This document shows, piece by piece, positions 24,963 through 39,977 of a stretch of DNA of 57,904 nucleotides (position 1 is its first letter; each line of letters starts with the position of its first letter). A program made the translations under genes and the position numbers. This stretch comes from Mycolicibacterium chubuense. GTDB taxonomy: Bacteria; Actinomycetota; Actinomycetes; Mycobacteriales; Mycobacteriaceae. The stretch is from positions 1 through 57,904 of the forward strand of contig NZ_JYNX01000014.1 of the NCBI RefSeq assembly GCF_001044255.1. Direction: 5' to 3'. Under the pieces are notes generated by a model, which saw only the letters and a program-made list of their open reading frames with translations, was not told the DNA's origin and ran no database searches.

Positions 24963-25928
24963 TCAGAGGTGTTCTGGCCGAGATTTCGGGGGCGGGGCCA
25001 CGACACCGAGAGCATCCGGCACCGCGACGAACTCCATCTTTTCGCGCGGGCCGATGAAATCGCCGTCGATCTGGCATGCCACCGGTCGGTCACTGGTCAC
25101 CGTCAGCCACGGCAGGTCGTCGTCTCGCACCAGATGCCGGGCTTTCAGCCGCGGATTTCGTGACAGCATCTGCCGAACCAGGCCCAAGTTGGCCCACACG
25201 TTCATGCTCGTGGTCGCGAACACCCCGAGGCCGGTCTCGAAGGTGGTGTCGGGGTTCGTCCACACCGGGCGGGCGTTGGCGTAGGTCCACGGACTCGAGT
25301 TCGACACGAACGCGAAGTGCACGCCGGTGACCGGGTCCCGGTCGGGCAGGTGCAGCGTCAGCGTCGGTTCCGCCCGGGCGCTGGCCAGCACCTCACGGAT
25401 CGCGACCCGGATGTAGCGCGAGGCGGTGACCTTGCGTCCCTTGGCGCGCTGCTCCTCGACTGCGGCGACGACGTCGCCGTCCACGCCCATGCCCGCGGTG
25501 AACACCGCCCAGCGCTCCTTGCAGTCCATCAACCCGATGCGCCGCCACGTGCGGGTGCGCCGGAACTCCGAGAGCAGATCGACGAGCTGGTTGGTGGCCT
25601 CGAGTGGATCTGGGCTGATGCCGAGCGCGCGGGCGAACACGTTGGCCGACCCGCCGGGGACCACACCGACGGCGGGGCCGGCGTTCGATGGTCCGAGCTC
25701 CCCGAGGACGCCGTTGACGACCTCGTTCACGGTGCCGTCGCCGCCGTGCACGATCAGCACGTCGACTCCGCGTCGGGCGGCGTCACCGGCGATCTCGATC
25801 GCGTGGCCACGATGGTCGGTGTGCACGACGGTCAGCCGGGTCCGGCTCTCCAGGGCGTGGGCCAGCAGGTCGCGGCCCGCCCGCGTCGTCGACGTCGCAT
25901 TCGGGTTCACGATCAGCACGGCACGCAC
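24963..25928 (-). CDS. Diacylglycerol kinase-like lipid kinase (Rv3218-like)
   Basis: A 321-residue member of the DAGK catalytic-domain family. Seen: MRAVLIVNPNATSTTRAGRD, the nucleotide-binding GGDGT (62-66) followed by VNEV, and VGVVPGGSANVFARALG. Later strands contain GVDGDVVAAVE and a C-terminal IDGDFIG. Lipid phosphorylation is expected; the exact lipid is unknown. The start is GTG 25928. A -10 like TAGGCT (25937-25942, minus strand) overlaps the stop of the lysR gene immediately upstream, so the gene may have its own nearly leaderless promoter. Confidence 0.9.
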   Translation of the reverse strand: MRAVLIVNPNATSTTRAGRDLLAHALESRTRLTVVHTDHRGHAIEIAGDAARRGVDVLIVHGGDGTVNEVVNGVLGELGPSNAGPAVGVVPGGSANVFARALGISPDPLEATNQLVDLLSEFRRTRTWRRIGLMDCKERWAVFTAGMGVDGDVVAAVEEQRAKGRKVTASRYIRVAIREVLASARAEPTLTLHLPDRDPVTGVHFAFVSNSSPWTYANARPVWTNPDTTFETGLGVFATTSMNVWANLGLVRQMLSRNPRLKARHLVRDDDLPWLTVTSDRPVACQIDGDFIGPREKMEFVAVPDALGVVAPPPKSRPEHL

Positions 25929-25936: not shown

Positions 25937-25942
25937 AGCCTA
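25937..25942 (-). promoter_or_regulatory. Possible -10 of the lipid kinase gene inside the lysR stop
   Basis: Minus-strand TAGGCT ends 8 nt before GTG 25928. Its first three bases are the lysR TAG stop codon. Confidence 0.35.
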
Positions 25943-26854
25943 TCCGGATTCGTCGACCGCGATCTGCCGCAGCACGCTGATCACGTTGCCGATCAGCGGG
26001 TTGTCGGCCTCGGACACCCCCGAGCCCGCCGAACGCGTCGCGGCCAGCAGGTCGACGCCCAGGGTCGTCGGCAGCAGCGGGCGGTAGCGGACGCCCGCGA
26101 TGTCCAGCGCGGCGCTCGGAGCCGGCACGATCGCCACACCGAGACCGGCGGCGACGAGCGTCACCAGCGTCGAGGTCTCCGTCACCTCATGGCGCACGGT
26201 CGGGACGAAGCCCGCGTCGGCGCACGCGGCCGCGACGATGCTGCTCATCACCGATCGGCCGTTGCCGGCGTGCGCGACGAACGCCTCCTGCCGCAGGTCG
26301 GCCACCGTCAGCGTGTCTCGCGCCGCCAGCGGGTGGTCCGCGGGCAGCACGGCCAGCAGAGGGTCGCGGCGGATCGTCTCGACGTCGATGCCGGGGTGAT
26401 CGACCGGCGGCCGCAGCAGCGCCACGTCGATGGCGCCACTGTGCAGCGCGGTCAACTGGGCCGGCGCCAGCATCTCGCCGCGGACGCTGACCTCGACGCG
26501 GGGCAGGGTCTCGCGCAACGCGCGCACCAGCTGCGGCAGCAGCGAGTAGGTCGCCGAGCCGACGCAGCCGATGGTCAGCCGGCCCTCCTGCCCGGCGTGG
26601 ATCCGCCGCGCCTGCTCGGCGGCGTCGTCCACCTCGTCGAGGACCGCGATCGCGCGCCGCAGATACGCCCGGCCCGCGGCGGTGAGCTCGACCGAGCGGG
26701 TGGTGCGGATGAGCAGGTCGACGCCGAGCTCTTGCTCGAGGTGGCGGATCTGCTGCGACAGCGGCGGCTGCGCGATGTGCAGGCGTTGCGCAGCACGGCC
26801 GAAGTGCAGCTCCTCGGCGACCGCGCGGAAATAGCGGAGGTGGCGCAACTCCAT
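25940..26854 (-). CDS. LysR-type regulator of the pcaFDIJ operon (CatR/PcaQ-like)
   Basis: 304 residues. Seen: the LTTR winged helix at the N terminus (MELRHLRYFRAVAEELHFGRAAQRLHIAQPPLSQQIRHLEQELG, helix-turn-helix about 18-37) and a periplasmic-binding-like effector domain (about 90-295). It is divergent from pcaF with 77 bp between the start codons, the usual LTTR arrangement. ATG 26854 is chosen because a TAAACT -10 ends exactly 7 nt before it on the minus strand. The effector is probably a pathway intermediate such as protocatechuate, beta-ketoadipate or muconate (inference). Confidence 0.88.
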   Translation of the reverse strand: MELRHLRYFRAVAEELHFGRAAQRLHIAQPPLSQQIRHLEQELGVDLLIRTTRSVELTAAGRAYLRRAIAVLDEVDDAAEQARRIHAGQEGRLTIGCVGSATYSLLPQLVRALRETLPRVEVSVRGEMLAPAQLTALHSGAIDVALLRPPVDHPGIDVETIRRDPLLAVLPADHPLAARDTLTVADLRQEAFVAHAGNGRSVMSSIVAAACADAGFVPTVRHEVTETSTLVTLVAAGLGVAIVPAPSAALDIAGVRYRPLLPTTLGVDLLAATRSAGSGVSEADNPLIGNVISVLRQIAVDESG

Positions 26855-26931
26855 GACCAAGAGTTTAGAGCTCTCAATCATCGGCATTTGGGTATTTCTC
26901 TTTACTGAGTCGCGGACCTAGCGTGGAACGC
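26855..26931. promoter_or_regulatory. Divergent lysR/pcaF promoter region with two leaderless -10 elements
   Basis: Minus-strand TAAACT (26862-26867) ends 7 nt before the lysR ATG, and plus-strand TAGCGT (26919-26924) ends 7 nt before the pcaF ATG. Between them CAAT-N7-ATTTG (from 26875) is a weak dyad that could be the LysR site. Confidence 0.5.
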
Positions 26932-28143
26932 ATGGACATCGTCATCTGCAGCCCCCTCCGCACCCCGGTGGCGCGGATGGGCGGCGCACTCGCGGAGCTG
27001 AGCGCCGCCGACCTGGCCACCGCCGTTCTGCGGGAGCTTGCGGCCCAGACCGGTCTCGGCGAGGGAGACATCGACGACGTCATCCTCGGCCAGGGCTACG
27101 CCAGTGGAGAGGCGCCGGCGATCGGCCGCATCGCCGCCCTCGACGCCGGGCTCGGTACCGGCGTGCCGGGCCTGCAGGTCGACCGGCGCTGCGGTTCGGG
27201 CCTGCAGGCCGTGCTGTACGCAGCCGGTCAGGTGGCCACCGGCGCGGCGCGCGTGGTGGTCGCCGGCGGCGCCGAATCGATGTCCAACGTCGAGCACTAC
27301 GCCCTCGGGTTGCGCACGGGTGTGCGCCAGGGCGGCATCGCGCTGCTCGACCGTCTCGATCGGGCCCGTGAAACCGCGGGCGGCGCAACACATCCCGTCG
27401 CGGGTGGGATGATCGAGACCGCCGAGAACCTGCGCCGCGAGTACGGCATCGGCCGCGCCGACCAGGACGCTCTCGCGCTGCGCAGCCACCAGCGCGCCGT
27501 GGCCGCGCACGACGCCGGACGCTTCGCCGACGAACTCGTGCCCGTCACCGTGCCGGGGCGCCGCGGCAGGCCCGACGTCGTCGTGGACCGCGACGAGCAC
27601 CCCCGAGCCGACCTCGATCTGGAGGCGCTGGCCGCGCTGCGGCCGATCCGGTCGAAGGTCGACCCCGAGTCGACCGTCACCGCGGGCAACGCCTCCGGGC
27701 AGAACGACGGTGCTGCCCTGTGCGTCGTCACGACCCAGGCCGAGGCCGAAAAGCGCGCTCTCACTCCACTGTTGACGCTGCGGTCCTGGGCGGTCGCCGG
27801 TTGTGGCCCCGAGGTGATGGGCATCGGCCCGGTGAGCGCGACCGCCGCGGCGCTCGACCGCGCCGACTTGACGCTCGACGACATCGACCTGATCGAACTG
27901 AACGAGGCGTTCGCCGCCCAGGTGCTCGCCGTGCTCGCCGAATGGAAGATCGACCCGCTCGACGACCGGGTCAACCCGTGCGGATCCGGGATCTCGCTCG
28001 GTCACCCGATCGGGGCGACTGGGGCGCGCATCCTCGCCACCGCCGCCTACGAGGCGCGCCGCCGCGACGCTCGCTACGTCCTCGAGACCATGTGCATCGG
28101 TGGCGGTCAGGGTCTGGCAGCGGTCTTCGAGAGTATCCGGTGA
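26932..28143 (+). CDS. pcaF: Thiolase, probable beta-ketoadipyl-CoA thiolase
   Basis: 403 residues. It cleaves 3-oxoadipyl-CoA with CoA to acetyl-CoA and succinyl-CoA, the last step of protocatechuate catabolism. Seen: nucleophile Cys in VDRRCGSGLQAV, NASGQNDGA, ELNEAFAAQ, GHPIGATGARI with the active His, and the second Cys in ETMCIGGGQG. It is a bit divergent from classical PcaF, so specificity rests on context: it opens the pcaFDIJ operon and overlaps pcaD. ATG 26932 is supported by the TAGCGT -10 seven nt upstream; the GTG 9 nt earlier falls in the -10. Confidence 0.88.
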   Translation: MDIVICSPLRTPVARMGGALAELSAADLATAVLRELAAQTGLGEGDIDDVILGQGYASGEAPAIGRIAALDAGLGTGVPGLQVDRRCGSGLQAVLYAAGQVATGAARVVVAGGAESMSNVEHYALGLRTGVRQGGIALLDRLDRARETAGGATHPVAGGMIETAENLRREYGIGRADQDALALRSHQRAVAAHDAGRFADELVPVTVPGRRGRPDVVVDRDEHPRADLDLEALAALRPIRSKVDPESTVTAGNASGQNDGAALCVVTTQAEAEKRALTPLLTLRSWAVAGCGPEVMGIGPVSATAAALDRADLTLDDIDLIELNEAFAAQVLAVLAEWKIDPLDDRVNPCGSGISLGHPIGATGARILATAAYEARRRDARYVLETMCIGGGQGLAAVFESIR

Positions 28144-28901
28144 CCCTGATGAGCACAGTCGACGTGCATGCGGTGGTCTCCGGCGCCGGACCGGCGGTGG
28201 TGCTGTCCAACTCACTGGGTTCGACCCACCGGATGTGGGACCCGCAGGTCGCCGAGCTGGAGCGGCGATTCACCGTGGTGCGCTACGACACCCGCGGCCA
28301 CGGCGCGTCACCGGTCCCGGACGGGCCGTACACGATCGACGATCTGGCCGATGACCTCATCGCGCTGCTCGACCGGCTCGACCTCGAGCGGGCCCACCTC
28401 GTCGGGCTGTCGCTGGGCGGCATGACCGTCATGCGGGTCGCCGCACGAGACCCTGAGCGGGTCAGCCGGATCGCGCTGCTGTGCACCGGTGCGCAGCTGC
28501 CGCCGGCCACTGCCTGGACCGAACGCGCCGCCACCGTGCGCGCCCACGGCACGGGTGCCGTCGCCGCCGCCGTCGTCGACCGCTGGTTCACCGATGGATA
28601 CGACGGTGACCGCGGCTACTGGCAGCAGATGGTCGCGGCCACTCCGGCCGAGGGATACGCGGGCTGCTGTGAGGTAATCGCCGAACTCGATCTGCAGCAA
28701 CAACTTTCCGCGATCACCGCCCCGACGCTGGCCATCGCGGGAGCCGACGACCCGGCAACCCCGCCGGCCAGGCTGGCCGAGATCGCCGAGGCCGTGCCCG
28801 AATCGCGCCTGCTCGTCGTCGACGCCGCCGCCCATCTGGCCAACGCCGAACAACCCGGGGTGATCACCCCCGCCCTCATCGAACATCTGGAGCAGTCATG
28901 A
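28140..28901 (+). CDS. pcaD: 3-oxoadipate enol-lactonase
   Basis: A 253-residue alpha/beta hydrolase that opens the enol-lactone to 3-oxoadipate. Seen: [15 protein letters not shown] (oxyanion region), the nucleophile elbow [19 protein letters not shown] carrying the acid, and the catalytic His in [14 protein letters not shown] 28140 overlaps the thiolase stop (GTGA); ATG 28149 is an alternative. It overlaps pcaI by ATGA. The carboxymuconolactone decarboxylase is separate here (pcaC), not fused as in the PcaL of some actinobacteria. Confidence 0.9.
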
Positions 28902-29686
28902 CCGTGAACAAAGTGGTCGGTTCGGCCGCCGAGGCCGTCGCCGACATCCCCGACGGCGCGAGCCTGGCCGTCGGCGGCTTCGGCCTCGCCGGCATCCCGT
29001 GGTTCCTCATCGAGGCGCTGCTGGAGCAGGGCGCCGGCGACCTGACCATCGTCAGCAACAACTGCGGCGTCGACGGCGGCGGGCTGGGCCTGCTGCTCGA
29101 AGCGCGCCGGATCAGCCGCGTCATCGCCTCGTACGTCGGGGAGAACAAGGAATTCGCCCGCCAGTACCTGGCCGGCGAACTCACCGTGGAACTGACTCCC
29201 CAGGGCACGCTCGCCGAACGGTTGCGCGCCGGCGGCAGTGGCATCGGCGCGTTCTTCACCCCGACCGGCGTCGGCACCATGGTCGCCGAGGGTGGGCTGC
29301 CGTGGCGCTACCGCAGCGACGGGACCGTCGCGCTGGCGTCGCCGCCCAAGGAAGTCCGGGTCTTCAACGGCCGCGAGATGCTGCTCGAGGAGTCGATCGT
29401 CACCGACTACGCGCTGATCCGCGCCGCCGTCGCCGATACCGCTGGCAACTGCGTGTTCCACGCGGCCGCGCGCAATTTCAACCCGCCGGCGGCGATGTCC
29501 GGCCGCATCACCGTCGTGGAGGCCGAACGCGTCGTCGAAGTGGGCGAACTCCATCCCGACGAGATCCACCTGCCGGGCATCTTCGTCCAGCGGGTGCACG
29601 AACTGACCCCGGAACAGGCCACCCGCAAGGAAATCGAGAAGCTGACCACCCGGCCGCGGCCGGAACCGCAGGAGGTTGTGCGATGA
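28898..29686 (+). CDS. pcaI: 3-oxoadipate CoA-transferase subunit A
   Basis: 262 residues; with PcaJ it moves CoA from succinyl-CoA to 3-oxoadipate. Seen: the family I CoA-transferase signature [20 protein letters not shown] near residues 26-45, [30 protein letters not shown], and [17 protein letters not shown]. Start and stop both overlap neighbours by ATGA, giving a four-gene translationally coupled unit. A specificity for acetoacetate rather than 3-oxoadipate cannot be excluded from sequence, but the context is decisive. Confidence 0.9.
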
Positions 29687-30327
29687 GCTGGACCCGCAAC
29701 GAGATGGCCGCCCGGGCGGCCCTCGAACTGAACGACGGCGACTACGTCAACCTCGGCATCGGGCTGCCCACCCTGATCCCCGACCACCTCCCCGCCGGAT
29801 CCACGGTCACCCTGCACGCCGAGAACGGCATCCTCGGTGTGGGCCCGTTCCCCTACGAGGACGAGGTCGACCCGGATCTGGTCAACGCCGGCAAGCAGAC
29901 AGTGTCGGTGGTGGCCGGGGCCTCGTACTTCGACTCGGCGACCAGCTTCGCGATGATCCGCGGCGGTCACGTCGACGTCGCCGTGCTGGGGGGCATGCAG
30001 GTCGCGGCCAACGGCGACCTGGCCAACTGGATGGTCCCCGGCGCGATGGTCAAGGGCATGGGCGGTGCGATGGATCTGGTCAGCGGGGCCGAACGGGTGA
30101 TCGTGCTGATGGACCACACCGCGAAATCCGGTGCCGCCAAACTCGTTTCGGACTGCACCCTGCCGCTGACCGGTAAAGCGGTGGTCAGCCGGGTGATCAC
30201 CGACCTCGGGGTGTTCGACGTCGCCGGTGACGGGTTCACCGTCGTCGAGCTCGCGCCCGGCGTCGCCTACGCGGACGTGGTGGCCAAGACCGGGGCGCCG
30301 CTGAGCGGCGTGCCCGCCGCGGTGTGA
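29683..30327 (+). CDS. pcaJ: 3-oxoadipate CoA-transferase subunit B
   Basis: 214 residues. Seen: [15 protein letters not shown] and the catalytic glutamate in [11 protein letters not shown] that forms the enzyme-CoA thioester, then [33 protein letters not shown] and the family ending. Partner of PcaI. Last gene of the pcaFDIJ operon; its stop is separated by one base from the stop of the oppositely transcribed pcaC, so the two operons collide without room for a terminator. Confidence 0.92.
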
Positions 30328-30328
30328 G

Positions 30329-30694
30329 CTAATCCTCGTCGAGCACGCGCGAGGCGATGCGGAACGCGGTGTTGGCGTCGGGCACTCCGCAGTAGATCGC
30401 GCACTGCAGCAGCACCTCCTTGATCTCCTCGACTGTCAGGCCGTTGCGCCGCGCGGCCCGCACGTGCATCGCGAGCTCTTCGTGGTGGCCCCGGGCGATC
30501 AGCGCGGTGAGCGTGATCAGCGACCGCGACTTGCGGTCCAGGCCCGGCCGTGTCCAGATCTCGCCCCACGCATACCGGGTGATGAGATCCTGGAACTCCT
30601 CCGTGAACGCGGTGGTGCCGGCAACGGCGCGGTCCACATGCGCGTCGCCGAGAACCTCACGGCGAACGGCCATTCCGTCGTCGCGGATGCTCAT
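30329..30694 (-). CDS. pcaC: 4-carboxymuconolactone decarboxylase
   Basis: 121 residues. It removes CO2 from gamma-carboxymuconolactone to form the enol-lactone. Seen: VDRAVAGTTAFTEEFQDLITRYAWGEIWTRPGLDRKSRSLITL, a very typical PcaC block, and the AhpD-like EIKEVLLQCAIYCGVPDAN with the single active cysteine pattern of this branch. Its ATG overlaps the pcaB stop by one base (TGATG). Terminal gene of the pcaHGBC operon. Confidence 0.95.
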   Translation of the reverse strand: MSIRDDGMAVRREVLGDAHVDRAVAGTTAFTEEFQDLITRYAWGEIWTRPGLDRKSRSLITLTALIARGHHEELAMHVRAARRNGLTVEEIKEVLLQCAIYCGVPDANTAFRIASRVLDED

Positions 30695-31887
30695 CAGGTC
30701 TCCTTCAGATAGGCGGTGGCGCGGCGCAGCGCGGCGTCGACGAGCTGATCGGCGGCACCGGAATAGGTGGCGGCGGGCTGACGGTCCGCCAGCTCAGCCA
30801 TGGCCTGCTGTTCGGCGTCGATGCCCTCGGCCGCATGGAGATTGGAGCGGGCGCGGGCGGCGTCGAAGCGGAGTCCGGTCAGCAGATCGGTGGCCTGCGA
30901 GGCGGCGACGACCGTGGTGCGGACCAGTGTGCGCAGCGCCGCCCACTCGGCGTGCCAGCCGCCGTCGGAACGCTCGTCGACCGACGCCGCGGACGCGGAG
31001 TGCAGCGTCGCGCCGAGTGCGGGCGCGGTCAGGGCGGCGCGGCGCAGCAGTACCGTCAGCACCGGGTTGCTCTTGTGCGGCATGGTCGAGGACCCGCCGC
31101 CGGAACTCTCGGCGAGTTCACCGGCCCGGACGCCGGCCGCGACGTCGTTGGCGATGTGCCCCCACGCGTCGCAGCAGGTGACCAGCGCGTCACCCGCGCG
31201 CGTCAGGCGGGCACGCGAGGTGTGCCACGGAAGAGCCTCGGCCAGAGACAGTTTGACGGCCAGGGCGGCCGACATCGCCAGCGCGGCGTCGGCCGAACCC
31301 GTGAGCTCGGTCGCGGCGGCCAGCGTGCCCGCCGCGCCCCCGGCCTGCACTGAGGGAGCGGGCACGCAGTCCAGCGTTTCGGCGGCGTCGAGCACCGCGC
31401 CCAGCCAGACCGCGAACTTGAGTCCGGCGCTGCCCGGCAGCGCCGGCTGGGTCAGCGTGCGGGTGAGCAGCGGCTCGTACCGGTGGGCCGCAACCATGCC
31501 GGCGAGGGCCTGAACCTGTGCGTTCAGCTGTGTGCCGAGCGTGTCCAGCGCGTCACGCAGGCACAGCATCAGCGCCGTGTCGAGCACGTCCTGACTGGTC
31601 AGGCCGCGATGCAGCCACCGGGCGGTGTCGCCGCCGGTCCGCGACCGCAGCAGGGCGACGAGGCCCGTGACGGGGTTGCCGTCCTTCTCCGCACCCGCGG
31701 CGATCGTCGCCGCATCGGTGTGATCGACGAGCGCCGTCATGTCGGCAGCAGCCGAGGCGGGAGCCACGGCTTGCTCGACAAGCACGGCCAGCCAGGCGTT
31801 CTCGACATCGACCAGCGCGGCGAGGAATGCCTCGTCGCTCATCACCGCGCCTGCGCGGTGATCACCCGGCCAGAACAGGTCGGCCAC
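30694..31887 (-). CDS. pcaB: 3-carboxy-cis,cis-muconate cycloisomerase
   Basis: 397 residues, fumarase/aspartase superfamily. It lactonises 3-carboxymuconate to gamma-carboxymuconolactone. Seen: LTSQDVLDTALMLCLRD (conserved TSQD) and the superfamily signature GGGSSTMPHKSNPV. It is shorter than proteobacterial PcaB (about 450) because the C-terminal domain is reduced. The start is GTG, two bases after the pcaG stop. Operon position and neighbours support the call. Confidence 0.92.
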   Translation of the reverse strand: MADLFWPGDHRAGAVMSDEAFLAALVDVENAWLAVLVEQAVAPASAAADMTALVDHTDAATIAAGAEKDGNPVTGLVALLRSRTGGDTARWLHRGLTSQDVLDTALMLCLRDALDTLGTQLNAQVQALAGMVAAHRYEPLLTRTLTQPALPGSAGLKFAVWLGAVLDAAETLDCVPAPSVQAGGAAGTLAAATELTGSADAALAMSAALAVKLSLAEALPWHTSRARLTRAGDALVTCCDAWGHIANDVAAGVRAGELAESSGGGSSTMPHKSNPVLTVLLRRAALTAPALGATLHSASAASVDERSDGGWHAEWAALRTLVRTTVVAASQATDLLTGLRFDAARARSNLHAAEGIDAEQQAMAELADRQPAATYSGAADQLVDAALRRATAYLKET

Positions 31888-31889
31888 GG

Positions 31890-32462
31890 TCAGTGTCCCG
31901 GGTAGCGCAGGAAGACCGTCTCGTCGGGACCTTGCAGGGAGATGTCGAAACGCAACCCGGTCGCGTCGTGTTCGGCGATCAGCGTGCGCCGACGGTCGGC
32001 GGGCAGCGATCCCAGCAGCGGATCGGTGTCGAGCGCCGGCCCGGGAACGTAGGCGCGGGTGAACAACCGGTTGAGCAGGCCGCGGCCGAACACCGTCACG
32101 AGGATGAACGCCGCGCGGCCTGGCGCGGTGGCGCCGGGCTCGACCGTCGAGAAACTGAAGTGGCCGGCGTCGTCGGTCGAGGCACGGCCCCAGCCGGTGA
32201 ACGTCCAGCCGTCCCGGTGCAGCGACCCCGCCTGCCGGGGGACGGAGCCGTCGGCGCCCGCCTGCCAGATCTCCAGCAGCGCATCCGGCACCGGCTTGCC
32301 GTCACCGTCGGTCACGGTGCCGTGGAAGCGGATCGCGCCGGGTGTCTGCGGCGGGACGAGTTCCGAGTCGTGCTCGAACGGCAGCGCGTACCCGTAGAAG
32401 GGACCGATGGTCTGGCCGGGGGTGGGGGTCAGCAGGGTGCTCATGCTCTGCCCTTTGCTCAT
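31890..32462 (-). CDS. pcaG: Protocatechuate 3,4-dioxygenase alpha subunit
   Basis: 190 residues, intradiol dioxygenase fold without iron ligands. Seen: TPGQTIGPFYGYALPF, LLEIWQAGADG, GWGRASTDDAGHFSFSTV and the ending ETVFLRYPGH. The first ATG (32462) overlaps the pcaH stop by ATGA; a second ATG at 32444 would give MSTLLTP. It pairs with PcaH as (alpha-beta-iron) units that open the protocatechuate ring between C3 and C4. Confidence 0.93.
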   Translation of the reverse strand: MSKGQSMSTLLTPTPGQTIGPFYGYALPFEHDSELVPPQTPGAIRFHGTVTDGDGKPVPDALLEIWQAGADGSVPRQAGSLHRDGWTFTGWGRASTDDAGHFSFSTVEPGATAPGRAAFILVTVFGRGLLNRLFTRAYVPGPALDTDPLLGSLPADRRRTLIAEHDATGLRFDISLQGPDETVFLRYPGH

Positions 32463-33244
32463 CGCGCGTCCTCCTCGAACACGGTGCGCTGCGCTCCGGT
32501 CAGCACGATGTCCCAGCGATACCCGGTGCACCACTCGTGCGTGGACACATCGTGATCGTAGGCGGCGACCAGCCGGTCGCGGGCCTTCTGGTCGGTGATG
32601 GATTGGTAGATCGGATCCAGCGTGAACAGTGGATCGCCCGGGAAGTACATCTGGGTGATCATCCGCTGGGTGAAATCCGTTCCGAACAGCGAGAAGTGGA
32701 TGTGGGCGGGGCGCCAGGCGTTGCGGTGGTTCTTCCACGGGTACGGGCCGGGTTTGATGGTGGTGAACGCGTAGGTGCCGTCGTCGTCGGTCAGGCAGCG
32801 GCCCACGCCGGTGAAGTTCGGGTCGAGCGGAGCGGCGTGCTGATCGCGCTTGTGCACATAGCGTCCCGCCGCGTTGGCCTGCCAGATCTCGACCAGTTGG
32901 CGGCGCACCGGCCGGCCCTCGCCGTCGACGATGCGTCCGGTGACGATGATCCGCTCGCCGATCGGCGCCCCGTTGTGCTGGATCGTCAGATCGGATTCCA
33001 GCCGGTGCACGTCGCTGTCACCGAAGACCGGTGACCACAACTCGATGCCCTCCGGGTCCGCATGCTGCAGGTCTTTCGTCGGGTGGCGCAGAAGGCTGCT
33101 GCGGTAGGGCGCGTAGTCCAGCCGCGGCTGGGTCTCCTCGACGCCCGAGCGGAGGTAGGCCGACTCGATCGCCGCCATCTCGGCGTTGATCTCCGCCTGG
33201 CTCGCCGACGCGCTGTCCGGGTCGGTGCCGATGATTGCTGTCAT
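32459..33244 (-). CDS. pcaH: Protocatechuate 3,4-dioxygenase beta subunit (iron-binding)
   Basis: 261 residues; the catalytic subunit with non-haem Fe(III). Seen: all four ligands at the expected places, Y129 in GRYVHKRD, Y168 in GPYPWKNH, and H181 and H183 in RPAHIHFSLFG, plus LVEIWQANAAGRY. ATG 33244 is preferred over GTG 33253 because a TACGGT -10 ends exactly 7 nt upstream of it on the minus strand, implying a leaderless mRNA. First gene of pcaHGBC, divergent from the IclR regulator. Confidence 0.95.
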   Translation of the reverse strand: MTAIIGTDPDSASASQAEINAEMAAIESAYLRSGVEETQPRLDYAPYRSSLLRHPTKDLQHADPEGIELWSPVFGDSDVHRLESDLTIQHNGAPIGERIIVTGRIVDGEGRPVRRQLVEIWQANAAGRYVHKRDQHAAPLDPNFTGVGRCLTDDDGTYAFTTIKPGPYPWKNHRNAWRPAHIHFSLFGTDFTQRMITQMYFPGDPLFTLDPIYQSITDQKARDRLVAAYDHDVSTHEWCTGYRWDIVLTGAQRTVFEEDAR

Positions 33245-33251
33245 GGTGCTC

Positions 33252-33257
33252 ACCGTA
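33252..33257 (-). promoter_or_regulatory. -10 hexamer of leaderless pcaH promoter
   Basis: Minus-strand TACGGT followed by 7 nt and ATG 33244. The IclR half-sites begin 19 bp upstream, around the expected -35. Confidence 0.55.
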
Positions 33258-33276
33258 TGCCGGGCTGCGCGGCCGA

Positions 33277-33305
33277 CGGAAGGCTAAGCTTCCGCTGAGC
33301 GGAAG
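33277..33305. promoter_or_regulatory. Three-half-site IclR-family operator between pcaH and pcaR
   Basis: CGGAAG at 33277-33282, its inverse CTTCCG at 33289-33294, and a further direct CGGAAG at 33300-33305, spaced 12 and 11 bp. Known: the Acinetobacter IclR-family protein PcaU binds a palindrome plus one direct repeat, the same architecture. The third half-site is also the ribosome-site sequence of the regulator gene. Confidence 0.6.
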
Positions 33306-33315
33306 GATGTGTGCG

Positions 33316-34065
33316 ATGGCCGGAAACGCGGCGACGCCGGGCGTCAGCGTCACCCAGCGTTTGCTGGCCGTTGTCGGTGCATTCGACGACCGCCATCGGG
33401 CGCTGACGCTCACCGACCTTGCGCGCCGAGCCGGTCTCGCCGTGCCCACCGTGCACCGCCTGGTCGGCGAGCTGGTCGGCGGCGGTGCGCTGGAACGCCG
33501 CGACGACGGCCGCTACGTCGTCGGCCGGCTGCTGTGGCAGGCCGGGCTCCTGGCGCCGGTGCAGGGTCGGTTGACCGAGGTGGCCGAACCTTTCGTCAGT
33601 GACGTGTATGCGGCGACGCTGGCCACCGTCCACCTGGCGGTGCGCGACGGCGACCAGGTGCTCTATCTGCATCGGCTCGCCGGGCGGGCCTCGGTGCCGA
33701 TCGTCTCCACGGTCGGCAGCCGGCTGCCGATGCACTGCACCGGGGTCGGCAAGGTGCTGCTGGCCCACGCGCCGCAGGACGTGCGCGAGAACGTGCTGAC
33801 GAGTTTGCGGAGGGTGACGTCGCGGACGATCACGTCACGCCGCGTGCTCGAGGAGCAGTTGGACCGCGTCCGCCGCGAGGGTGTCGCGATGACCGCCGAG
33901 GAGATGTCGCTGGGCGCCTGTTCGCTGGCGGTGCCGGTCGTCCAGTCCTCGGACGACACCGTGGCGGCCGCGCTCGGAGTGGTGGTGCCCACCCTCAAGC
34001 GTGACCGCCAGCGGTTGATCGGTGCGCTGCAGGTCGCCGCCCGCGGCATCGGCCGCCTCCTCTGA
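33316..34065 (+). CDS. pcaR: IclR-family regulator of the protocatechuate operon (PcaR/PcaU-like)
   Basis: 249 residues. Seen: an N-terminal winged HTH (SVTQRLLAVVGAFDDRHRALTLTDLARRAGLAVPTVHRLVGELV, about 11-54) and an IclR effector domain (about 80-249) with MHCTGVGKVLLA. Divergent from pcaH across a 71-bp region containing the three-half-site operator. ATG 33316 lies 9 nt after GGAAGG; ATG 33307 is an in-frame alternative. It probably binds protocatechuate or beta-ketoadipate (inference from family). It could activate or repress. Confidence 0.88.
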   Translation: MAGNAATPGVSVTQRLLAVVGAFDDRHRALTLTDLARRAGLAVPTVHRLVGELVGGGALERRDDGRYVVGRLLWQAGLLAPVQGRLTEVAEPFVSDVYAATLATVHLAVRDGDQVLYLHRLAGRASVPIVSTVGSRLPMHCTGVGKVLLAHAPQDVRENVLTSLRRVTSRTITSRRVLEEQLDRVRREGVAMTAEEMSLGACSLAVPVVQSSDDTVAAALGVVVPTLKRDRQRLIGALQVAARGIGRLL

Positions 34066-34068
34066 TAT

Positions 34069-34129
34069 GCCGAAACTGTATTCCGCGCGGGCTCTCGGTG
34101 CTCGAACGCGCGCGGAATACAGTTTCGGC
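34069..34129. terminator. Perfect 21-bp inverted repeat between pcaR and the MHS transporter
   Basis: Arms 34069-34089 (starting GCCGAAACTGTATTCCGCGC) and 34109-34129 are exactly complementary, with a 19-nt loop. It lies between convergent genes. The inner GTATTCCGCG resembles the core of the repeat at 19702-19764. Confidence 0.7.
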
Positions 34130-34136
34130 GGATAGA

Positions 34137-35474
34137 TCAGTGGGCGACCAGGGTCCGGGTCGACTCGGCGTCGCTGCGGCCCAGCTGGTCCGTCGGGACG
34201 TTCTTGGTTTCGCGGGCCGTCAGCGCGGCACCGGCCGAGATCAAGCAGACCACCGCGGTGAAGAGGCTGATGACCACCCATCCGCCTTCGCGAACGCCAC
34301 CGAGTGCGGTGACGATCGACGGGGCGAAACCGGCGAGCAGGAAGCCGATCTGCGTGCCGATCGCCATCCCCGAGAACCGGACCTGGGTGGAGAACATCTC
34401 GCCGTAGAACGACGGCCAGACCGCGTTGGCCGCGGCGTAGCCGAACGAGAAGGTCGCGACGGCCAGCGCGAAGGTCAGCAGGTGATTGCCCTGGCTCATC
34501 GAGAGCATGTAGAAGGGCATCAGCGCGGCCGAGGAGAGCGCGCCGTAGATGAACACCGGCTTGCGTCCGATCCGGTCGGCGAGCTTGCCGAACAGGGGCT
34601 GGGTGAAGAGCGCACCCACGTTCGCGGCGACGACGAGCCACAGCGTCAGATCGGCGTCGAGGCCCACCTTCTTGCCGTACGCGAGCGCGAGATTGGCGAA
34701 CACCGTGGACACCGCGGCGATGAACGCGCACAGGATGACGCGCACCACGTCGCGCCAGTGGTGGCGCAGCAGCGGCACCAGCGGCATCCGGGCGATCGTG
34801 CCGGCGTTCTTGGCCTCGGTGAACTGCGGGGTCTCGTGCAGCTGGCGGCGGATGAAGTACGCGACCACGACGACCGCGGCCGACAGCCAGAACGGAACCC
34901 GCCATCCCCAGCTGTATTTCGCCTCGTCGGGCAGGGCCATGAACGGGATCATCACCAGCGACGCGAGGATCAGGCCGCCCTGGGTGCCGGTCAACGTCCA
35001 CGACGTGTAGAAGGCCCGTTGATCGTCGGGGGAGTGTTCGAGGGTCAGCGAGCTGGCCCCGGCTTGCTCGCCGGCGGCCGAAAGACCCTGCAGCAGACGG
35101 CAGATCACCAGCAGCACGGGCGCGGCCCAGCCGATGGTGTCGAAGGTCGGCAGGCAGCCGATCAGGAACGTCGACAGACCCATCAGCACCAGGGTGAACA
35201 TCAGGACGCGCTGCCGGCCGATGCGGTCGCCGAAGTGGCCCAGGATGACCGCGCCGACGGGCCGCGCGATGTAGGCGAAGCCGAACGTGGCGAAGGACAT
35301 CACCAGCGACGCTTCGTCGTCGGAGGGGAAGAACACGTGCGGGAAGATCAGCGCCGCCGCGGACCCGAACAGGAAGAAGTCGTAGTACTCGACGGCGCTG
35401 CCCATGAAGCTGGCGAGCGCGGCCCGCCGCGGCGTCTTCTCGGGGAGGATCCCCGGGTCGTGGGTGGTGGTCAT
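34137..35474 (-). CDS. shiA: MHS-family (MFS) symporter, probable shikimate/quinate importer
   Basis: A 445-residue inner-membrane carrier with 12 hydrophobic segments. Seen: the metabolite:H+ symporter hallmarks VEYYDFFLFGSAAALIFPHVFFP, GHFGDRIGRQRVL between TM2 and TM3, RLLQGLSAAGEQAGA and GKLADRIGRKPV. This family includes ShiA, KgtP and ProP. It is preceded by aroE on the same strand with 57 bp between them, so shikimate, quinate or protocatechuate is the likely substrate (inference from neighbours). A TAAGGAG ribosome site supports the start. Confidence 0.85.
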   Translation of the reverse strand: MTTTHDPGILPEKTPRRAALASFMGSAVEYYDFFLFGSAAALIFPHVFFPSDDEASLVMSFATFGFAYIARPVGAVILGHFGDRIGRQRVLMFTLVLMGLSTFLIGCLPTFDTIGWAAPVLLVICRLLQGLSAAGEQAGASSLTLEHSPDDQRAFYTSWTLTGTQGGLILASLVMIPFMALPDEAKYSWGWRVPFWLSAAVVVVAYFIRRQLHETPQFTEAKNAGTIARMPLVPLLRHHWRDVVRVILCAFIAAVSTVFANLALAYGKKVGLDADLTLWLVVAANVGALFTQPLFGKLADRIGRKPVFIYGALSSAALMPFYMLSMSQGNHLLTFALAVATFSFGYAAANAVWPSFYGEMFSTQVRFSGMAIGTQIGFLLAGFAPSIVTALGGVREGGWVVISLFTAVVCLISAGAALTARETKNVPTDQLGRSDAESTRTLVAH

Positions 35475-35531
35475 CGGTGACTCCTTAGGGCGAATTGTGC
35501 CGGACGAAGGGACATTTCAGGGCTGATCTGG

Positions 35532-36395
35532 TCATTCGGCGACCAGCGAGCGGAAGTGCTTGGACATCCGCTCGGCGTCTGGGGCGATTCCGGTGATGAG
35601 GGCGAACGCGTCGGTGGCCTGATGGACCGCCATGTGGCCGCCGTCGAGCGTGCGGCACCCCGCGGCGCGCGCGGCCTGGAGCAGCGCGGTGTTCAGCGGC
35701 CGGTAGACGATGTCGGCGACCCACAATCGCGGGTGCAGCAGCTCGGCGGAGAAGGCCATGCCCGGATGGGCCGCCATTCCGGTCGGGGTCGCGTGCACCA
35801 CGCCGTCACTGACGGGCAGCAGGTCGGGAAGCTGGTCGAACGCCGATGCCGACACCCGAGCATGCGGATGGCGCCCGGCGAGGTCGGCGCTCAGCCGCGC
35901 GGCGCGCGCGACGTCGAGGTCGACGATGTGCAGATTCCGGCAGCTGAGCCGGAGCAGCGCATCGGCCACCGCGGTGCCCGCGCCGCCCGCGCCGACGAGC
36001 ACGACGGTGTCGACCGCCGCGCCGGGCAGACCCTCGGTGAAGCCGTGGGCGAAGCCGGTGACGTCGGTGTTGTGGCCGCGGGTCCGGCCGTCGTCGCCGA
36101 ACACCACGGTGTTGACCGCGCCGAGGGCGGCCGCGGCCGGGTCGATCTCGTCGAGATGCCCGACCACCAGCTGCTTGCAGGGGTGGGTGATGTTCAGCGC
36201 GTCGAACCCGAGCGCCCGGGCCCACGACAGCACCTCGCCGATTCGTGTGGGGGAGATGGCCAGCTCGTCGAGGTCGATCGTGCGGTACACGTAGTCGAGT
36301 CCCTGGGCGCGGGCCTCGGTCATGTGCAGCGCCGGCGAGAGCGACGGGCCGACGCCGGTGCCGACGAGTCCGACGAGGTAGGGACGCGGGTTCAT
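35532..36395 (-). CDS. Quinate/shikimate dehydrogenase (QsuD-like, AroE family)
   Basis: 287 residues. Seen: SLSPALH (substrate Ser pair), NITHPCKQ with the catalytic Lys, NTDVTGF with the catalytic Asp, the Rossmann VVLVGAGGAGTAVADALL with the acidic HIVDLD that favours NAD, and HMAVHQATDAF near the end. The NAD-type Asp and the catabolic neighbours suggest oxidation of quinate and shikimate rather than biosynthetic reduction. The promoter contains the TetR-type dyad. It forms an operon with the transporter. Confidence 0.85.
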   Translation of the reverse strand: MNPRPYLVGLVGTGVGPSLSPALHMTEARAQGLDYVYRTIDLDELAISPTRIGEVLSWARALGFDALNITHPCKQLVVGHLDEIDPAAAALGAVNTVVFGDDGRTRGHNTDVTGFAHGFTEGLPGAAVDTVVLVGAGGAGTAVADALLRLSCRNLHIVDLDVARAARLSADLAGRHPHARVSASAFDQLPDLLPVSDGVVHATPTGMAAHPGMAFSAELLHPRLWVADIVYRPLNTALLQAARAAGCRTLDGGHMAVHQATDAFALITGIAPDAERMSKHFRSLVAE

Positions 36396-36409
36396 GCGGG
36401 CCTCTCCGT

Positions 36410-36427
36410 AATGTACTAACTGGTACG
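36410..36427 (-). promoter_or_regulatory. TetR-type operator overlapping the -10 of the quinate dehydrogenase promoter
   Basis: On the minus strand CGTACCAGTTAGTACATT; TACATT (36410-36415) is a -10 candidate. 14 of 18 bases match the operator at 37280-37297 in the same relative orientation. Confidence 0.55.
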
Positions 36428-36503
36428 TACAGAGAAGTAGAGCACTGTGGTGCGTGTCGCGTCAAGAGCGGATTGTGACGGGGCGCATAGTTCCGGGAGC
36501 CGT

Positions 36504-36559
36504 GAGTAGACGCGAACTCGCGCTGAAGTGCCGCGCAGCGCGCGGGTTCGCGTCTGCTC
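36504..36559. terminator. Stem-loop after the tetR gene
   Basis: 20-nt arms 36504-36523 (GAGTAGACGCGAACTCGCGC) and 36540-36559 pair fully with two G-U pairs, loop 16 nt. The GTAGACGCGAA / TTCGCGTCTGCTC type of repeat is familiar from mycobacterial intergenic hairpins (my recollection). Confidence 0.65.
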
Positions 36560-36577
36560 GCGGGGAAATGGGCCTGG

Positions 36578-37225
36578 TCAGCCGACCGGGGCGGTCAGCC
36601 ACCCGACGATGACGTCGCCGATCATCCGGCGCAGGTGGGCGCGCTGCGAGATGTCGGTCAGGTCGACGTCGAAGAGATAGCCGAAGGTGTAGCGGTTGGC
36701 CACCTGGAACACGCAGTACGAACTGATCACCAGGTGGACGTCCAGCGCCGTGACGTCGGATCGGAAGACACCGGCCTCCCGCCCGTCGCGCAGGATGTCG
36801 TCGAGCAGCGACGTCGCCGGCTGGGAGAGTTCGGGCAGGTCACGCAACTGGCGGATGAACTCGCCGCGGTGGATGTTCTCGATCGACACCAGTCGAATGA
36901 ACGCGTCGTGCGCGATGTGATGGTCGAAGGTGACCTCGGCCAGCCGCCGGATCGCCTCCACCGGATTGGCGTGGTCGACCGTGAGCTTCTGTTCCGCCTC
37001 CCGGATGCCGCGGTAGGCGTCCTCCAGAACGGCCAGGTAGAGCTGCTCTTTGCCGCCGAAGTAGTAGTAGATCATCCGTTTGGTGGTGCGGGTGCGCTCG
37101 GCGATCTCGTCGACGCGGGCGCCCGAATAGCCCGATTCGGCGAACACCTCGGTCGCCACGGCCAGCAGCTCGGCGCGGGTGCGCTCGGCGTCGCGCTGCA
37201 GTTCGGCTTTCGGCTTGGCGGCCAC
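36578..37225 (-). CDS. TetR-family regulator of the quinate/shikimate genes
   Basis: 215 residues. Seen: the N-terminal TetR HTH (VATEVFAESGYSGARVDEIAERTRTTKRMIYYYFGGKEQLY, about residues 22-62), and a C-terminal ligand domain of the TetR_C type with FDHHIAHDAFIRLVSIENIHRGEF. GTG start 37225. It is divergent from the qsuB-like gene (78 bp between starts), whose promoter holds a TGAACCAATTGGTACA dyad, and follows the quinate dehydrogenase gene's own copy. It is likely a repressor relieved by a pathway metabolite (inference). Confidence 0.88.
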   Translation of the reverse strand: MAAKPKAELQRDAERTRAELLAVATEVFAESGYSGARVDEIAERTRTTKRMIYYYFGGKEQLYLAVLEDAYRGIREAEQKLTVDHANPVEAIRRLAEVTFDHHIAHDAFIRLVSIENIHRGEFIRQLRDLPELSQPATSLLDDILRDGREAGVFRSDVTALDVHLVISSYCVFQVANRYTFGYLFDVDLTDISQRAHLRRMIGDVIVGWLTAPVG

Positions 37226-37279
37226 GATGGCTGAGCTTACTGTTCGCGCCCCGATCCGGTCCGCACTCTTCCGTCTTAA

Positions 37280-37297
37280 TGAACCAATTGGTACATT
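37280..37297 (+). promoter_or_regulatory. TetR-type operator and -10 of leaderless qsuB-like promoter
   Basis: The dyad TGAACCAATTGGTACA (37280-37295) overlaps TACATT (37292-37297), which ends 6 nt before ATG 37304. Repressor binding would cover the -10. Confidence 0.6.
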
Positions 37298-37303
37298 GCT
37301 GTG

Positions 37304-39124
37304 ATGAAGACCTCGATCGCGACCGTGTGCCTGTCCGGATCACTGGTGGAGAAACTGCACGCCAGCGCGGCCGCAGGCTTCGACGGCGTCGAGATCTTCG
37401 AGCCCGATCTCATCGCCGGGGACCATTCACCCGAGGAGATCCGGGCACTGGCCCGGCGCCTCGGCCTGACGCTGGATCTCTATCAGCCGCTGCGCGACCT
37501 CGAGGGCGTCGACGAGGCCACCTTCACCGACAACCTCCGCCGCGCGGCCGCCACGTTCGCCACTGCCCAGCGGCTCGGTATCCAGACCGTGCTGGTCTGC
37601 AGCAATGTCGCCACCGCGACCGTCGACTCCGACGAGGTGTCCGCGGGGCAACTGCGCCGCATCGGCGATGTCGCGCAGAGCTACGGCGTGCGCATCGCGT
37701 TCGAGGCGCTCGCCTGGGGCCGCTTCATCGACGACTACCGGCGCGCCTGGCGCGTCGTCGAACTCGCCGACCACCCCGCCGTCGGGGTGTGCCTAGACAG
37801 CTTCCACGTGCTGTCCCTGGGCCACGACCCGGCGCAGATCACCGAGATCCCGGCCGACAAGATCTTCTACCTGCAACTCGCCGACGCGCCCGCGCTGACC
37901 ATGGACGTGCTGTCGTGGAGCCGCCACCACCGGCTGTTCCCGGGCGAGGGCGCGTTCGACCTGACGCGGTTCGTCTCGTGCGTGCTGGCCGCCGGCTACG
38001 ACGGCCCGCTGTCGCTGGAGGTCTTCAACGACACGTTCCGCCAGACCGATCCGCGCCACACCGCCGTGCACGCGCTGCGGTCACTGACGTGGTTGCAGGA
38101 CAAGGTCGCCGCCGCCGACCCGGAAGGATGGCGGCCCGACCTGACCACGCTCGCCGCGGCCAAGCCCCCGACCGCGTTCGACTTCGTCGAGCTCAAGGCC
38201 GAGGACACCAGCGAGGTCGAGGTGCTGCTCGGCCAGCTCGGCTTCACCATGCGCGGCCGGCACCGCACCAAGCCGGTGTCGCTGTGGTCGGCCGGCGACG
38301 CGCGCATCGTGCTCAACGAACAGCAGGCCCGCGATCGCGTGCCGCACGTCGCGGCGGTCGGACTGCAGGTGCCCGACGCCGGCGCCACCACCGCCAGGGC
38401 GGCCCAGCTGATGGCCCCGGTGGCCTACCGCCGCACCTACGCCTCCGAACAACCCTTCGGCGCGGCCGTCGCGCCCGACGGTACGGAGTTCTATTGGATC
38501 CCCGAGGCGCACGGCGCTCCGGAGTGGGTCGCCGAGTTCGACGGCGGCATCCCCGAGACCGAGCCCTGCGGGGTGCGCGCGATCGACCACGCGAACCTCA
38601 CCCAACCCTGGCAGACCGCCGAGGACACCGTGCTGTTCCTGCGCAGCGTGTTCGGCCTGACGCCGGATGCTCCCGCCGAAGTACCCGGTCCGACGGGCCT
38701 GGTCCGCAGCCAGGTGATGCGCACCGAGGACGGGGCGATCCGGATCCCGCTCAACGTCGCGCCGCATGTGCTCGACCATTCCGGGCTGGCCCAGCACGTC
38801 GCGTTCACGTGCTCCGACGTGGTCGGGCTGGCCCGCCGCGCCGCCGACCGCGGTCTGGCGTTCCTGCCCGTCTCCGACAACTACTACGACTATCTGCGGG
38901 GCCGTTTCGGCCTCGGCACCGATGAGGTGGCCGAGCTCAAGGAGCTCAACCTGCTCTACGATCGCAGCCCCGACGGACATTTCGTGCACTTCTACACCCG
39001 CACGGTCGGATCGGTGTTCTTCGAGTTCGTGCAGCGGTTCGGGCACTACGACGGCTACGGAACCGACAACGCCCCGGTCCGGTTGGCCGCGCAACGCGTG
39101 GCCGCCGGTACCGTACGTCCGTGA
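37304..39124 (+). CDS. qsuB: 3-dehydroshikimate dehydratase fused to an HPPD-like domain (QsuB type)
   Basis: 606 residues. The N-terminal half (about 1-270) is a TIM-barrel sugar-phosphate-isomerase-like dehydratase converting 3-dehydroshikimate to protocatechuate; the metal ligands E134, D165, Q191 and E239 are all visible (FEALAWG, CLDSFH, LQLAD, SLEVFN). The C-terminal half (about 290-600) resembles 4-hydroxyphenylpyruvate dioxygenase and keeps its ligand triad H429 (IDHANL), H498 (QHVAF) and E574 (FFEFVQRFG). This matches Corynebacterium QsuB. The role of the second domain is unclear. The ATG is 6 nt after the TACATT -10; the GTG one codon earlier is less likely. Confidence 0.92.
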
Positions 39125-39564
39125 CCGCACGCCGTCTGCTCCTCGTCAACGGGCCGAACCTGAACCTGCTCGGCACCCGGCAACCCGAGGTCTACGGCTC
39201 GACGACGCTCGCCCAGATCGAGGCACGGGTGCGCGAGGTCGCCGCCGAAGCCGGCCTCGAGGTGCGCGCCGTGCAGAGCAACCACGAGGGCGCCCTCATC
39301 GACGCCATCCAGTCCGCGCGTGAGGACTGTGCGGCCATCGTCATCAATCCCGCCGCCTACAGCCACACGTCGGTGGCCATCGCCGACGCGCTGCGCTCGG
39401 TCGATCTGCCGGTCGCCGAGGTGCATCTGAGCAATATCCATGCGCGCGAAGAGTTCCGGCACCACTCCTATGTGTCGGCGGTGGCCGACATGGTGGTGGC
39501 CGGCGCCGGTCCACTCGGCTACGAGATGGCGGTCCGGTATCTGGCGGACAGGATCGCCCGGTGA
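39121..39564 (+). CDS. aroQ: Type II 3-dehydroquinate dehydratase
   Basis: 147 residues. It dehydrates 3-dehydroquinate to 3-dehydroshikimate. Seen: [18 protein letters not shown] with catalytic R20 and Y25, NPAAYSHTS, and [17 protein letters not shown] with the active His. GTG start overlaps the qsuB stop (GTGA), and its own stop overlaps the next gene. It is probably a catabolic isozyme, since mycobacteria also have a biosynthetic copy in the main aro cluster. Confidence 0.93.
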
Positions 39565-39977
39565 CGCCGCGGGTGGTCCGCGCGGCCGGGGTCATCGCTG
39601 CGCTGCAGGGATCGCTCGCGCTGGTGACGGCGGTCGTGCTCGTCGTGCGCGAAATCGCCGGCCACCACGAGGACGCCATCAGCGGCTATGGCACCGCGGT
39701 GTGGTTCGCGATCATGGGGTCGGCCGTCGCCGCCGCGGGCTGGGCGCTGTGGACGGGGCGGCGGTGGGGCCGAGGCATCGCCGTGTTCGCGAACCTCGTC
39801 CTGCTCGGTGTCGCCTGGTACGTCTTCAGCTCTGGGCAGCTGGCCTACGCGGTGCTGGTGGCCGGGGTGTCGGTCTCGGTGCTGGCGCTGCTGTTCAGCC
39901 CGCCGGGGCTGCAGTGGCTCACTCAGGCCGGCGACGAGGCCGCCAGCTCGGACAGCTCGGGTCCCGACACCCGGTAG
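39561..39977 (+). CDS. Four-helix membrane protein, Rv3217c-like
   Basis: 138 residues with four hydrophobic segments (about 8-30, 44-66, 72-92, 94-112) and a polar tail [14 protein letters not shown]. No catalytic motif; function unknown. It is a core gene by synteny but here its GTG start overlaps the stop of the accessory aroQ (GTGA), so its translation appears tied to the island operon. Its last 55 bp overlap the 3' end of the convergent acetyltransferase gene. Confidence 0.8.

What the first reader, a model, noticed from the sequence alone, without database searches (positions are those of the whole stretch)
25940..39564. Complete quinate/shikimate to TCA island inserted into a conserved core neighbourhood
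All enzymes from quinate oxidation to succinyl-CoA plus acetyl-CoA lie in one 13.6-kb block, arranged as pcaFDIJ> <pcaCBGH, pcaR>, <aroE-shiA, <tetR, qsuB-aroQ>. The block sits between the Rv3218-like and Rv3217c-like genes, which I recall as adjacent in H37Rv. Three regulators of different families each stand at one divergent promoter, implying layered control. Gene calls rest on motifs; the insertion claim rests on recalled synteny.
Basis: partly seen in the sequence, partly recalled or inferred. Interest (0 to 1): 0.7.

Follow-up and report, generated by a model that had tools for sequence, protein, structure and literature searches.

The report
Catabolic island docked on essential aroQ
A mycobacterium carries a complete set of genes for eating quinate and shikimate, and the set is joined to the only copy found of an enzyme the cell also needs to make its own aromatic amino acids, with what looks like that enzyme's private on-switch kept inside the tail end of the neighbouring gene.

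Summary
In detail: genes for every step from quinate to the TCA cycle lie at 25940-39564, between Rv3218-like and Rv3217c-like genes. Those two are direct neighbours in 26 of 40 fetched same-genus sites without aroQ.

"One inserted block" needs correcting. The last gene, aroQ (39121-39564), is the only dehydroquinase found in this genome. It stands at this site in at least 22 of 115 same-genus genomes with an aroQ, without the island in 16. In 21 of 21 of these examined it is missing from the usual aroC-K-B cluster. So a relocated biosynthetic gene has a catabolic cassette docked in front of it.

In 29 of 29 such loci (27 at the site, 2 docked loci with flanks not fetched), TANNNT lies 6-7 nt before the aroQ start codon, predicting a leaderless transcript. 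In 7 of them it is also the last codons of qsuB. One of these has two copies, the upstream one differing only by synonymous bases. Microbacterium testaceum has the same cassette ending at its own aroQ. Two of 41 sites without aroQ keep likely aroQ stubs.

Most likely a TetR-controlled promoter and an embedded promoter share one dehydroquinase. No transcript or growth data exist here.

The parts
24963..25928 (-). Rv3218-like lipid kinase, left flank of the site
   Evidence: DAGK_cat; conserved flank in relatives
25940..26854 (-). LysR-type regulator of the pcaFDIJ module
   Evidence: LysR models incl. BenM/CatM, all below cut-off; same LysR-pcaFDIJ order beside Rv3218 in G012 (L060)
26932..28143 (+). 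pcaF, thiolase
   Evidence: below the pcaF equivalog cut-off
28149..28901 (+). pcaD, 3-oxoadipate enol-lactonase
   Evidence: TIGR02427 over cut-off
28898..29686 (+). pcaI
   Evidence: TIGR02429 over cut-off
29683..30327 (+). pcaJ
   Evidence: TIGR02428 over cut-off
30329..30694 (-). pcaC
   Evidence: TIGR02425 over cut-off
30694..31887 (-). pcaB
   Evidence: TIGR02426, 337 against cut-off 356
31890..32444 (-). pcaG
   Evidence: TIGR02423 over cut-off
32459..33253 (-). pcaH
   Evidence: TIGR02422 over cut-off
33289..33305 (.). CTTCCGCTGAGCGGAAG palindrome between pcaH and the IclR gene, candidate operator
   Evidence: same palindrome upstream of pcaH in G055 (L220), which also has a pcaR match
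33307..34065 (+). IclR-type regulator, PcaR/PcaU-like (start codon uncertain)
   Evidence: below subfamily cut-off
34137..35474 (-). shikimate-transporter-like MFS
   Evidence: below equivalog cut-off; 81% identical in the M. testaceum cassette
35532..36395 (-). qsuD, quinate/shikimate dehydrogenase
   Evidence: 3jyo E 1e-74; NF009201 over cut-off
36409..36430 (-). candidate TetR operator before qsuD
   Evidence: GTTAGTACAT core before qsuD in 12 of 12 islands printed; coordinates
36578..37225 (-). TetR-type regulator
   Evidence: TetR_N, TetR_C_29
37278..37297 (+). candidate TetR operator AATGAACCAATTGGTACATT; its last six bases TACATT (37292-37297) lie 6 nt before the qsuB ATG
   Evidence: GTACATT before qsuB in 12 of 12 islands printed; coordinates
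37304..39124 (+). qsuB, 3-dehydroshikimate dehydratase fused to an HPPD-like domain; its tail GTVRP-stop is encoded by the predicted aroQ promoter
39107..39116 (+). GGTACCGTAC: predicted aroQ promoter (-10 TACCGT, 39109-39114), inside the qsuB 3' end
   Evidence: TANNNT at 6-7 nt in 29 of 29 loci; only exact copy in the window, both strands
39121..39564 (+). aroQ, type II dehydroquinase, only dehydroquinase found in the genome
   Evidence: 4-base overlaps with qsuB and with the next gene
39561..39977 (+). Rv3217c-like gene, right flank
   Evidence: position and conservation; no family hit

Best explanation
A second-lineage aroQ, carrying its own leaderless promoter, came to lie between the Rv3218-like and Rv3217c-like genes in one part of the genus and took over from the aro-cluster aroQ, which was then lost in those lineages. 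A quinate/shikimate cassette (shiA, qsuD, tetR, qsuB, plus pca genes) docked directly upstream, up to the aroQ promoter. In this genome qsuB and aroQ now overlap by 4 bases. [quoted passage not shown] When substrate is absent, the promoter inside the last qsuB codons should keep making AroQ for aromatic amino acid synthesis. Shown here by sequence: gene content, sole-copy status, site, promoter-like element, tree positions. Inferred: enzyme activities, promoter use, TetR ligand, order of events.
For: Sole dehydroquinase: no type I, one type II. Site aroQ in 21 of 115 genomes by distance to Rv3218, plus G041 whose contig shows the entC side. aroQ absent from the aroC-K-B cluster in 21 of 21 site-type genomes examined (G109 not fetched), while in 28 of 28 other genomes whose aroQ surroundings I fetched it lies there. 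Site AroQs with G067's island AroQ form one clade (27 rows, SH-aLRT 99; with G501 and G599, 29 rows, 98/97), apart from the aro-cluster lineage. TANNNT at 6 or 7 nt in 29 of 29 loci against 2 of 2059 positions just upstream; the GTA valine codon used is 4 of 378 in block CDS. G501: the upstream copy encodes the same GTVR with GGC-ACG-GTG-CGG, and an intact copy lies next to aroQ. M. testaceum: the cassette sits between aroB and aroQ, and the qsuB stop falls in TGATAGCGT, shared with Microbacterium sp. T32, which has no cassette there; the two AroQs are sisters. Five of seven islands elsewhere have no aroQ match by qsuB. Operator-like motifs recur in 12 of 12 islands printed. TANNNT -10 elements and leaderless genes are common in M. 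smegmatis (PMC6448022, passages).
Against: No TSS or expression data. G370 (another family) has a sole dehydroquinase right behind qsuB but, by eye, no TANNNT at that spacing, so the embedded promoter is not universal. G067 carries a qsuB-aroQ pair elsewhere with a site-clade AroQ and no such element. The site cassettes of window/G054, G087/G109 and G041 form one clade (98/100), which also fits one ancestral island lost many times. The species tree from aroC-K-B has a weak backbone. In M. testaceum versus T32, loss of the cassette in T32 is possible too. In 15 of 20 class-level genomes with qsuB read at its 3' end, no aroQ lies directly behind it: docking is one arrangement among several.
Confidence: 0.62

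Rival explanations
1. One ancestral island carrying qsuB-aroQ entered this site once; its aroQ made the aro-cluster copy dispensable; the island was then lost many times, leaving aroQ behind because it had become indispensable.
For: Five site cassettes in the tree (G000, G054, G087, G109, G041) form one clade; island genes or remnants occur at this site in G000, G054, G087, G109, G041, G028, G033 and G012; the block of the near relative G054 is decaying while its aroQ match is full length at 97%; likely aroQ stubs in G028 and G033 suggest that lineages once had both copies.
Against: Islands elsewhere mostly lack aroQ (5 of 7; G067 has one, G009 has one in pieces); G501 has two promoter-like copies, which fits insertion in front of an existing aroQ; the element exists in block-free genomes; M. 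testaceum has the cassette before an AroQ that is sister to that of a cassette-free congener.
Confidence: 0.3
2. Ordinary catabolic island: aroQ is a catabolic enzyme driven only from the TetR promoter, and the TANNNT element is incidental.
For: qsuB and aroQ overlap by 4 bases; C. glutamicum has qsuC inside qsuABCD (PMC8042324, passages); G370 has no visible element.
Against: No other dehydroquinase found in the genome; the element is kept in 29 of 29 loci, with a synonymously changed copy only where a second copy exists.
Confidence: 0.12
3. The conserved element is the former promoter of the Rv3217c-like gene, reused when aroQ landed in front of it.
For: Several Rv3217c-like genes at sites without aroQ also start with GTG a few bases after a TANNNT (not counted).
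Against: The element lies 6-7 nt from the aroQ start, about 450 bases from the next gene's start; this concerns its origin more than its present use.
Confidence: 0.1

Closest known systems
Corynebacterium glutamicum qsuABCD
   Same: Putative shikimate importer, DHS dehydratase, dehydroquinase and shikimate dehydrogenase together, dehydroquinase inside the catabolic cluster (PMC8042324, passages); C. glutamicum matches the type II but not the type I family among the control genomes
   Different: There one operon, with a LysR regulator (recalled); here a TetR, split operons, a DSD-HPPD fusion, and a promoter-like element of aroQ's own inside qsuB
Mycobacterial pca (beta-ketoadipate) clusters
   Same: pcaHGB and pcaIJ genes, unstable composition between species (PMC4342237, passages)
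   Different: The word quinate does not occur in that paper's main text; there pcaF lies outside the cluster and pcaL is one gene
DSD-HPPD fusion of PDB 5hmq (Pseudomonas putida QuiC1, recalled)
   Same: QsuB aligns over residues 2-599 of the query
   Different: The NCBIfam QuiC cut-off is not reached (500 against 1200)
Xenologous gene displacement (general concept, recalled)
   Same: A distant homologue at another place replaces the resident gene, which is lost
   Different: Here the replacing gene also became the docking point of a catabolic cassette

Membership tests
[quoted passage not shown]
   pcaF, pcaB, qsuB and transporter by scores below their specific cut-offs
quinate/shikimate-protocatechuate catabolic cluster | growth on or induction by quinate | not testable with these tools
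   no cultures or transcripts
biosynthetic dehydroquinase | only dehydroquinase of the genome | tested here: met
   assembly of 96 contigs, completeness given as 100
biosynthetic dehydroquinase | loss causes need for aromatic compounds | not testable with these tools
   needs a deletion
mycobacterial leaderless promoter with TANNNT -10 | TANNNT about 6-7 nt before a start codon | tested here: met
   29 of 29 loci
mycobacterial leaderless promoter with TANNNT -10 | mapped transcript start at the start codon | not testable with these tools
   no TSS data held
classical genomic island | tRNA site or composition shift | tested here: not met
   no tRNA in the window; GC 0.68-0.73 within the range of the window
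classical genomic island | integrase or transposase | tested here: inconclusive
   none among the genes called in the block; not every ORF of the window was scanned

The most novel reading that the evidence does not exclude
Quinate cassettes repeatedly dock on a resident dehydroquinase gene, ending exactly at its private promoter, so one enzyme serves opposite pathways from two promoters, one of them overlapping the C-terminal codons of the upstream catabolic gene. This would be a recurrent route by which catabolic and biosynthetic pathways fuse, with traces of loss left on both sides.
Probability: 0.35. Interest if true: 0.75.

Novelty: new variant of a known kind. Interest (0 to 1): 0.6.

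Why it matters
An enzyme presumably needed for making aromatic amino acids would be tied to a switchable catabolic operon, and the sequence suggests how the cell avoids starving itself: a promoter hidden in the codons of the upstream gene. It gives a testable case of pathway fusion, of relocation of a probably essential gene within one genus, and of selection on synonymous sites. It also shows that the dehydroquinase, studied as a drug target in M. tuberculosis (titles and abstracts listed), is not one orthologous gene across the genus.

Tried and rejected
Remnants of qsuB or pca genes in the 65-620 bp between Rv3218 and aroQ of block-free genomes: no hits at the tblastn cut-offs used; no more sensitive search was run. 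Compositional evidence of foreign origin: none seen. One species tree to date the events: backbone too weak. Naming the window's organism: not achieved; the search for related loci named five site-type relatives (M. kyogaense, M. setense, M. neoaurum, sp. CBMA 234, sp. MBM). Microbacteriaceae and Aeromicrobium AroQs as proof of the donor: the joining branch is only moderately supported (94 SH-aLRT; 93/81 for the sister group). G234 and G144 as further sole-dehydroquinase cases: rejected, both have a type I enzyme. Dropped rows: the first AroQ tree used 113 of 158 distinct sequences. One search looked at spacings 5-8; all hits were at 6 or 7.
Full report
The observation. The block 25940-39564 contains, in order, LysR<, pcaF> pcaD> pcaI> pcaJ>, pcaC< pcaB< pcaG< pcaH<, an IclR regulator>, a shikimate-transporter-like MFS<, a quinate/shikimate dehydrogenase<, TetR<, qsuB> and aroQ>. 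Matches to sequences of solved structures support two enzymes: QsuD with 3jyo and QsuB with 5hmq. GC content and the lack of tRNA genes give no sign of a classical island.

AroQ is not just part of the island. The genome has no type I dehydroquinase match and one type II gene, this one. In 118 same-genus genomes, 115 have a type II match and 113 have exactly one; G067 has two, and G009 has one plus a second in two pieces. Comparing aroQ and Rv3218 places puts aroQ within 25 kb of Rv3218 in 21 of 115 genomes, own genome included; G041 makes 22 by its entC-side contig. Site-type genomes on broken contigs could have been missed. In 28 of the other 93 genomes I fetched the aroQ surroundings, and all 28 have aroQ behind aroB; the remaining 65 were not read. 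In the own genome and 20 other site-type genomes the aro cluster has no aroQ match; in two of these about 0.9 kb of other DNA lies there.

The site. Forty sites were fetched from genomes without aroQ there (L235-L274; two of them, G070 and G106, had no aroQ match at all, and several carry islands elsewhere). In 26 the two flanking genes are within about 150 bp, 13 have 0.2-3.5 kb of other DNA, and one (G033) has pcaI and pcaJ; none has aroQ. G028 (L215), fetched separately, has an island at the site but no aroQ there, and has aroQ in its aro cluster (L221). Of the 22 site-type genomes, 14 have aroQ less than 620 bp from Rv3218, G034 and G096 have about 6.8 kb of other DNA between, and six have the block or parts of it: G000, G054 (decayed), G087, G109, G041 and, as LysR-pcaFDIJ without qsu genes, G012. 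G027 and G099, with aroQ alone at the site, have a different qsuB (44-45%) elsewhere.

Wider search. A class search found a strong qsuB match in 40 of 394 genomes. For the 20 best after the own genome I fetched 851 bases behind qsuB and counted type II genes. In 5 of 20 aroQ lies directly behind qsuB: G501 and G599 (same genus, only type II gene), G370 (another family, only type II gene, no type I), and G418 and G347 (a second aroQ elsewhere; judged by coordinates). Whether G501 and G599 lie at the Rv3218 site was not checked.

The promoter-like element. In 29 of 29 loci (27 at the site, plus G501 and G599) TANNNT lies 6 or 7 nt before the aroQ start, 24 of them as exact GGTACCGTAC. The preceding 76 nt of the same loci hold 2 in 2059 positions. 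In the seven docked loci (window, G054, G041, G087, G109, G501, G599) these bases are the last codons of qsuB: in the window GGT ACC GTA CGT CCG TGA. GTA is 4 of 378 valine codons of the block. In G501 an upstream copy still encodes VGTVRP but with GGC ACG GTG CGG, and an intact copy lies next to aroQ. G067, whose island lies elsewhere and whose genome keeps an aro-cluster aroQ, lacks the element. G370, with a sole dehydroquinase behind qsuB, shows none by eye, which counts against a general rule.

A case in another genus. In Microbacterium testaceum StLB037 (L146) shiA, qsuD, tetR and qsuB (81, 64, 76 and 63% identical) lie between aroB and aroQ, and the qsuB stop falls in CGCTGATAGCGTGC. The same element stands before aroQ in Microbacterium sp. 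T32 (L148), which has no cassette there. The two AroQs are sisters (100/99). Other Microbacterium loci have aroB and aroQ overlapping or with other spacers. The operator-like motifs are also shared.

Signs of loss on both sides. G028 and G033 keep, just before the Rv3217c-like gene, a promoter-like element followed by a mini-ORF starting VTERR or VTDRR, much as site AroQs start (VTERR, VTARR, VTDRR among those printed); the G028 one ends LTDRRAR against LADRIAR in the window AroQ. I read these as aroQ stubs. They are 2 of 41 sites printed, of which two (L262, L265) do not reach the gene start; such short matches could in part be chance.

History. AroQ falls into two deep lineages; site AroQs, with G067's, are one clade near Microbacteriaceae and Aeromicrobium sequences. 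On a tree of aroC-K-B (21 site-type and 28 other genomes) the site-type genomes form four groups with at least four changes, on a weak backbone. In a tree of tetR, qsuD and qsuB (14 islands), five site cassettes form one clade and seven islands elsewhere another, with G028 outside both. I favour aroQ first and docking later (about 0.6), over one island with aroQ lost many times (about 0.3).

Regulation. The TetR operator candidate overlaps the TACATT that lies 6 nt before the qsuB ATG; a similar one precedes qsuD. Each core recurs in 12 of 12 islands printed (qsuB: without G009; qsuD: without G041, whose contig ends). A palindrome between pcaH and the IclR gene recurs upstream of pcaH in G055. 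These are predictions.

Literature. Among the papers listed by searches (lists capped at 8 to 20 of up to 144 hits; open-licence PMC text only) I saw no title or abstract start on quinate cassettes joined to the sole aroQ of mycobacteria. Passages were read in PMC10772564, PMC8042324, PMC4342237, PMC6448022 and PMC10653884. The last reports that synonymous recoding that adds TANNNT can start transcription inside mycobacterial genes and that TANNNT is depleted in coding sequence, which supports reading the conserved copy as functional.

Noticed in passing
L045 (G054), site island: Close relative with a decayed block: qsuB matched in three pieces, no match for shiA, pcaH, pcaG and pcaR, pcaB and qsuD truncated, while the aroQ match is full length (97%).
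   Followed up: partly
L075 (G009): An island elsewhere with a different qsuB (45%) and an aroQ in two pieces, in a genome that also has an aro-cluster aroQ.
   Followed up: no
L060 (G012): LysR-pcaFDIJ beside Rv3218, then about 10 kb holding a partial dioxygenase-like match (32% to pcaH) and another LysR, then aroQ: the site may attract aromatic-catabolism genes.
   Followed up: no
G097 (same genus, 97% complete): No type I or type II dehydroquinase match was found; either a gap in the assembly or an unusual aromatic pathway.
   Followed up: no
window 34069-34129: Inverted repeat with arms of 21 bases between the convergent IclR and transporter genes, read by eye; probably a two-way terminator.
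   Followed up: no
L310 (G370): Sole dehydroquinase directly behind qsuB in another actinobacterial family, without a visible -10 element; a third possible docking case.
   Followed up: partly
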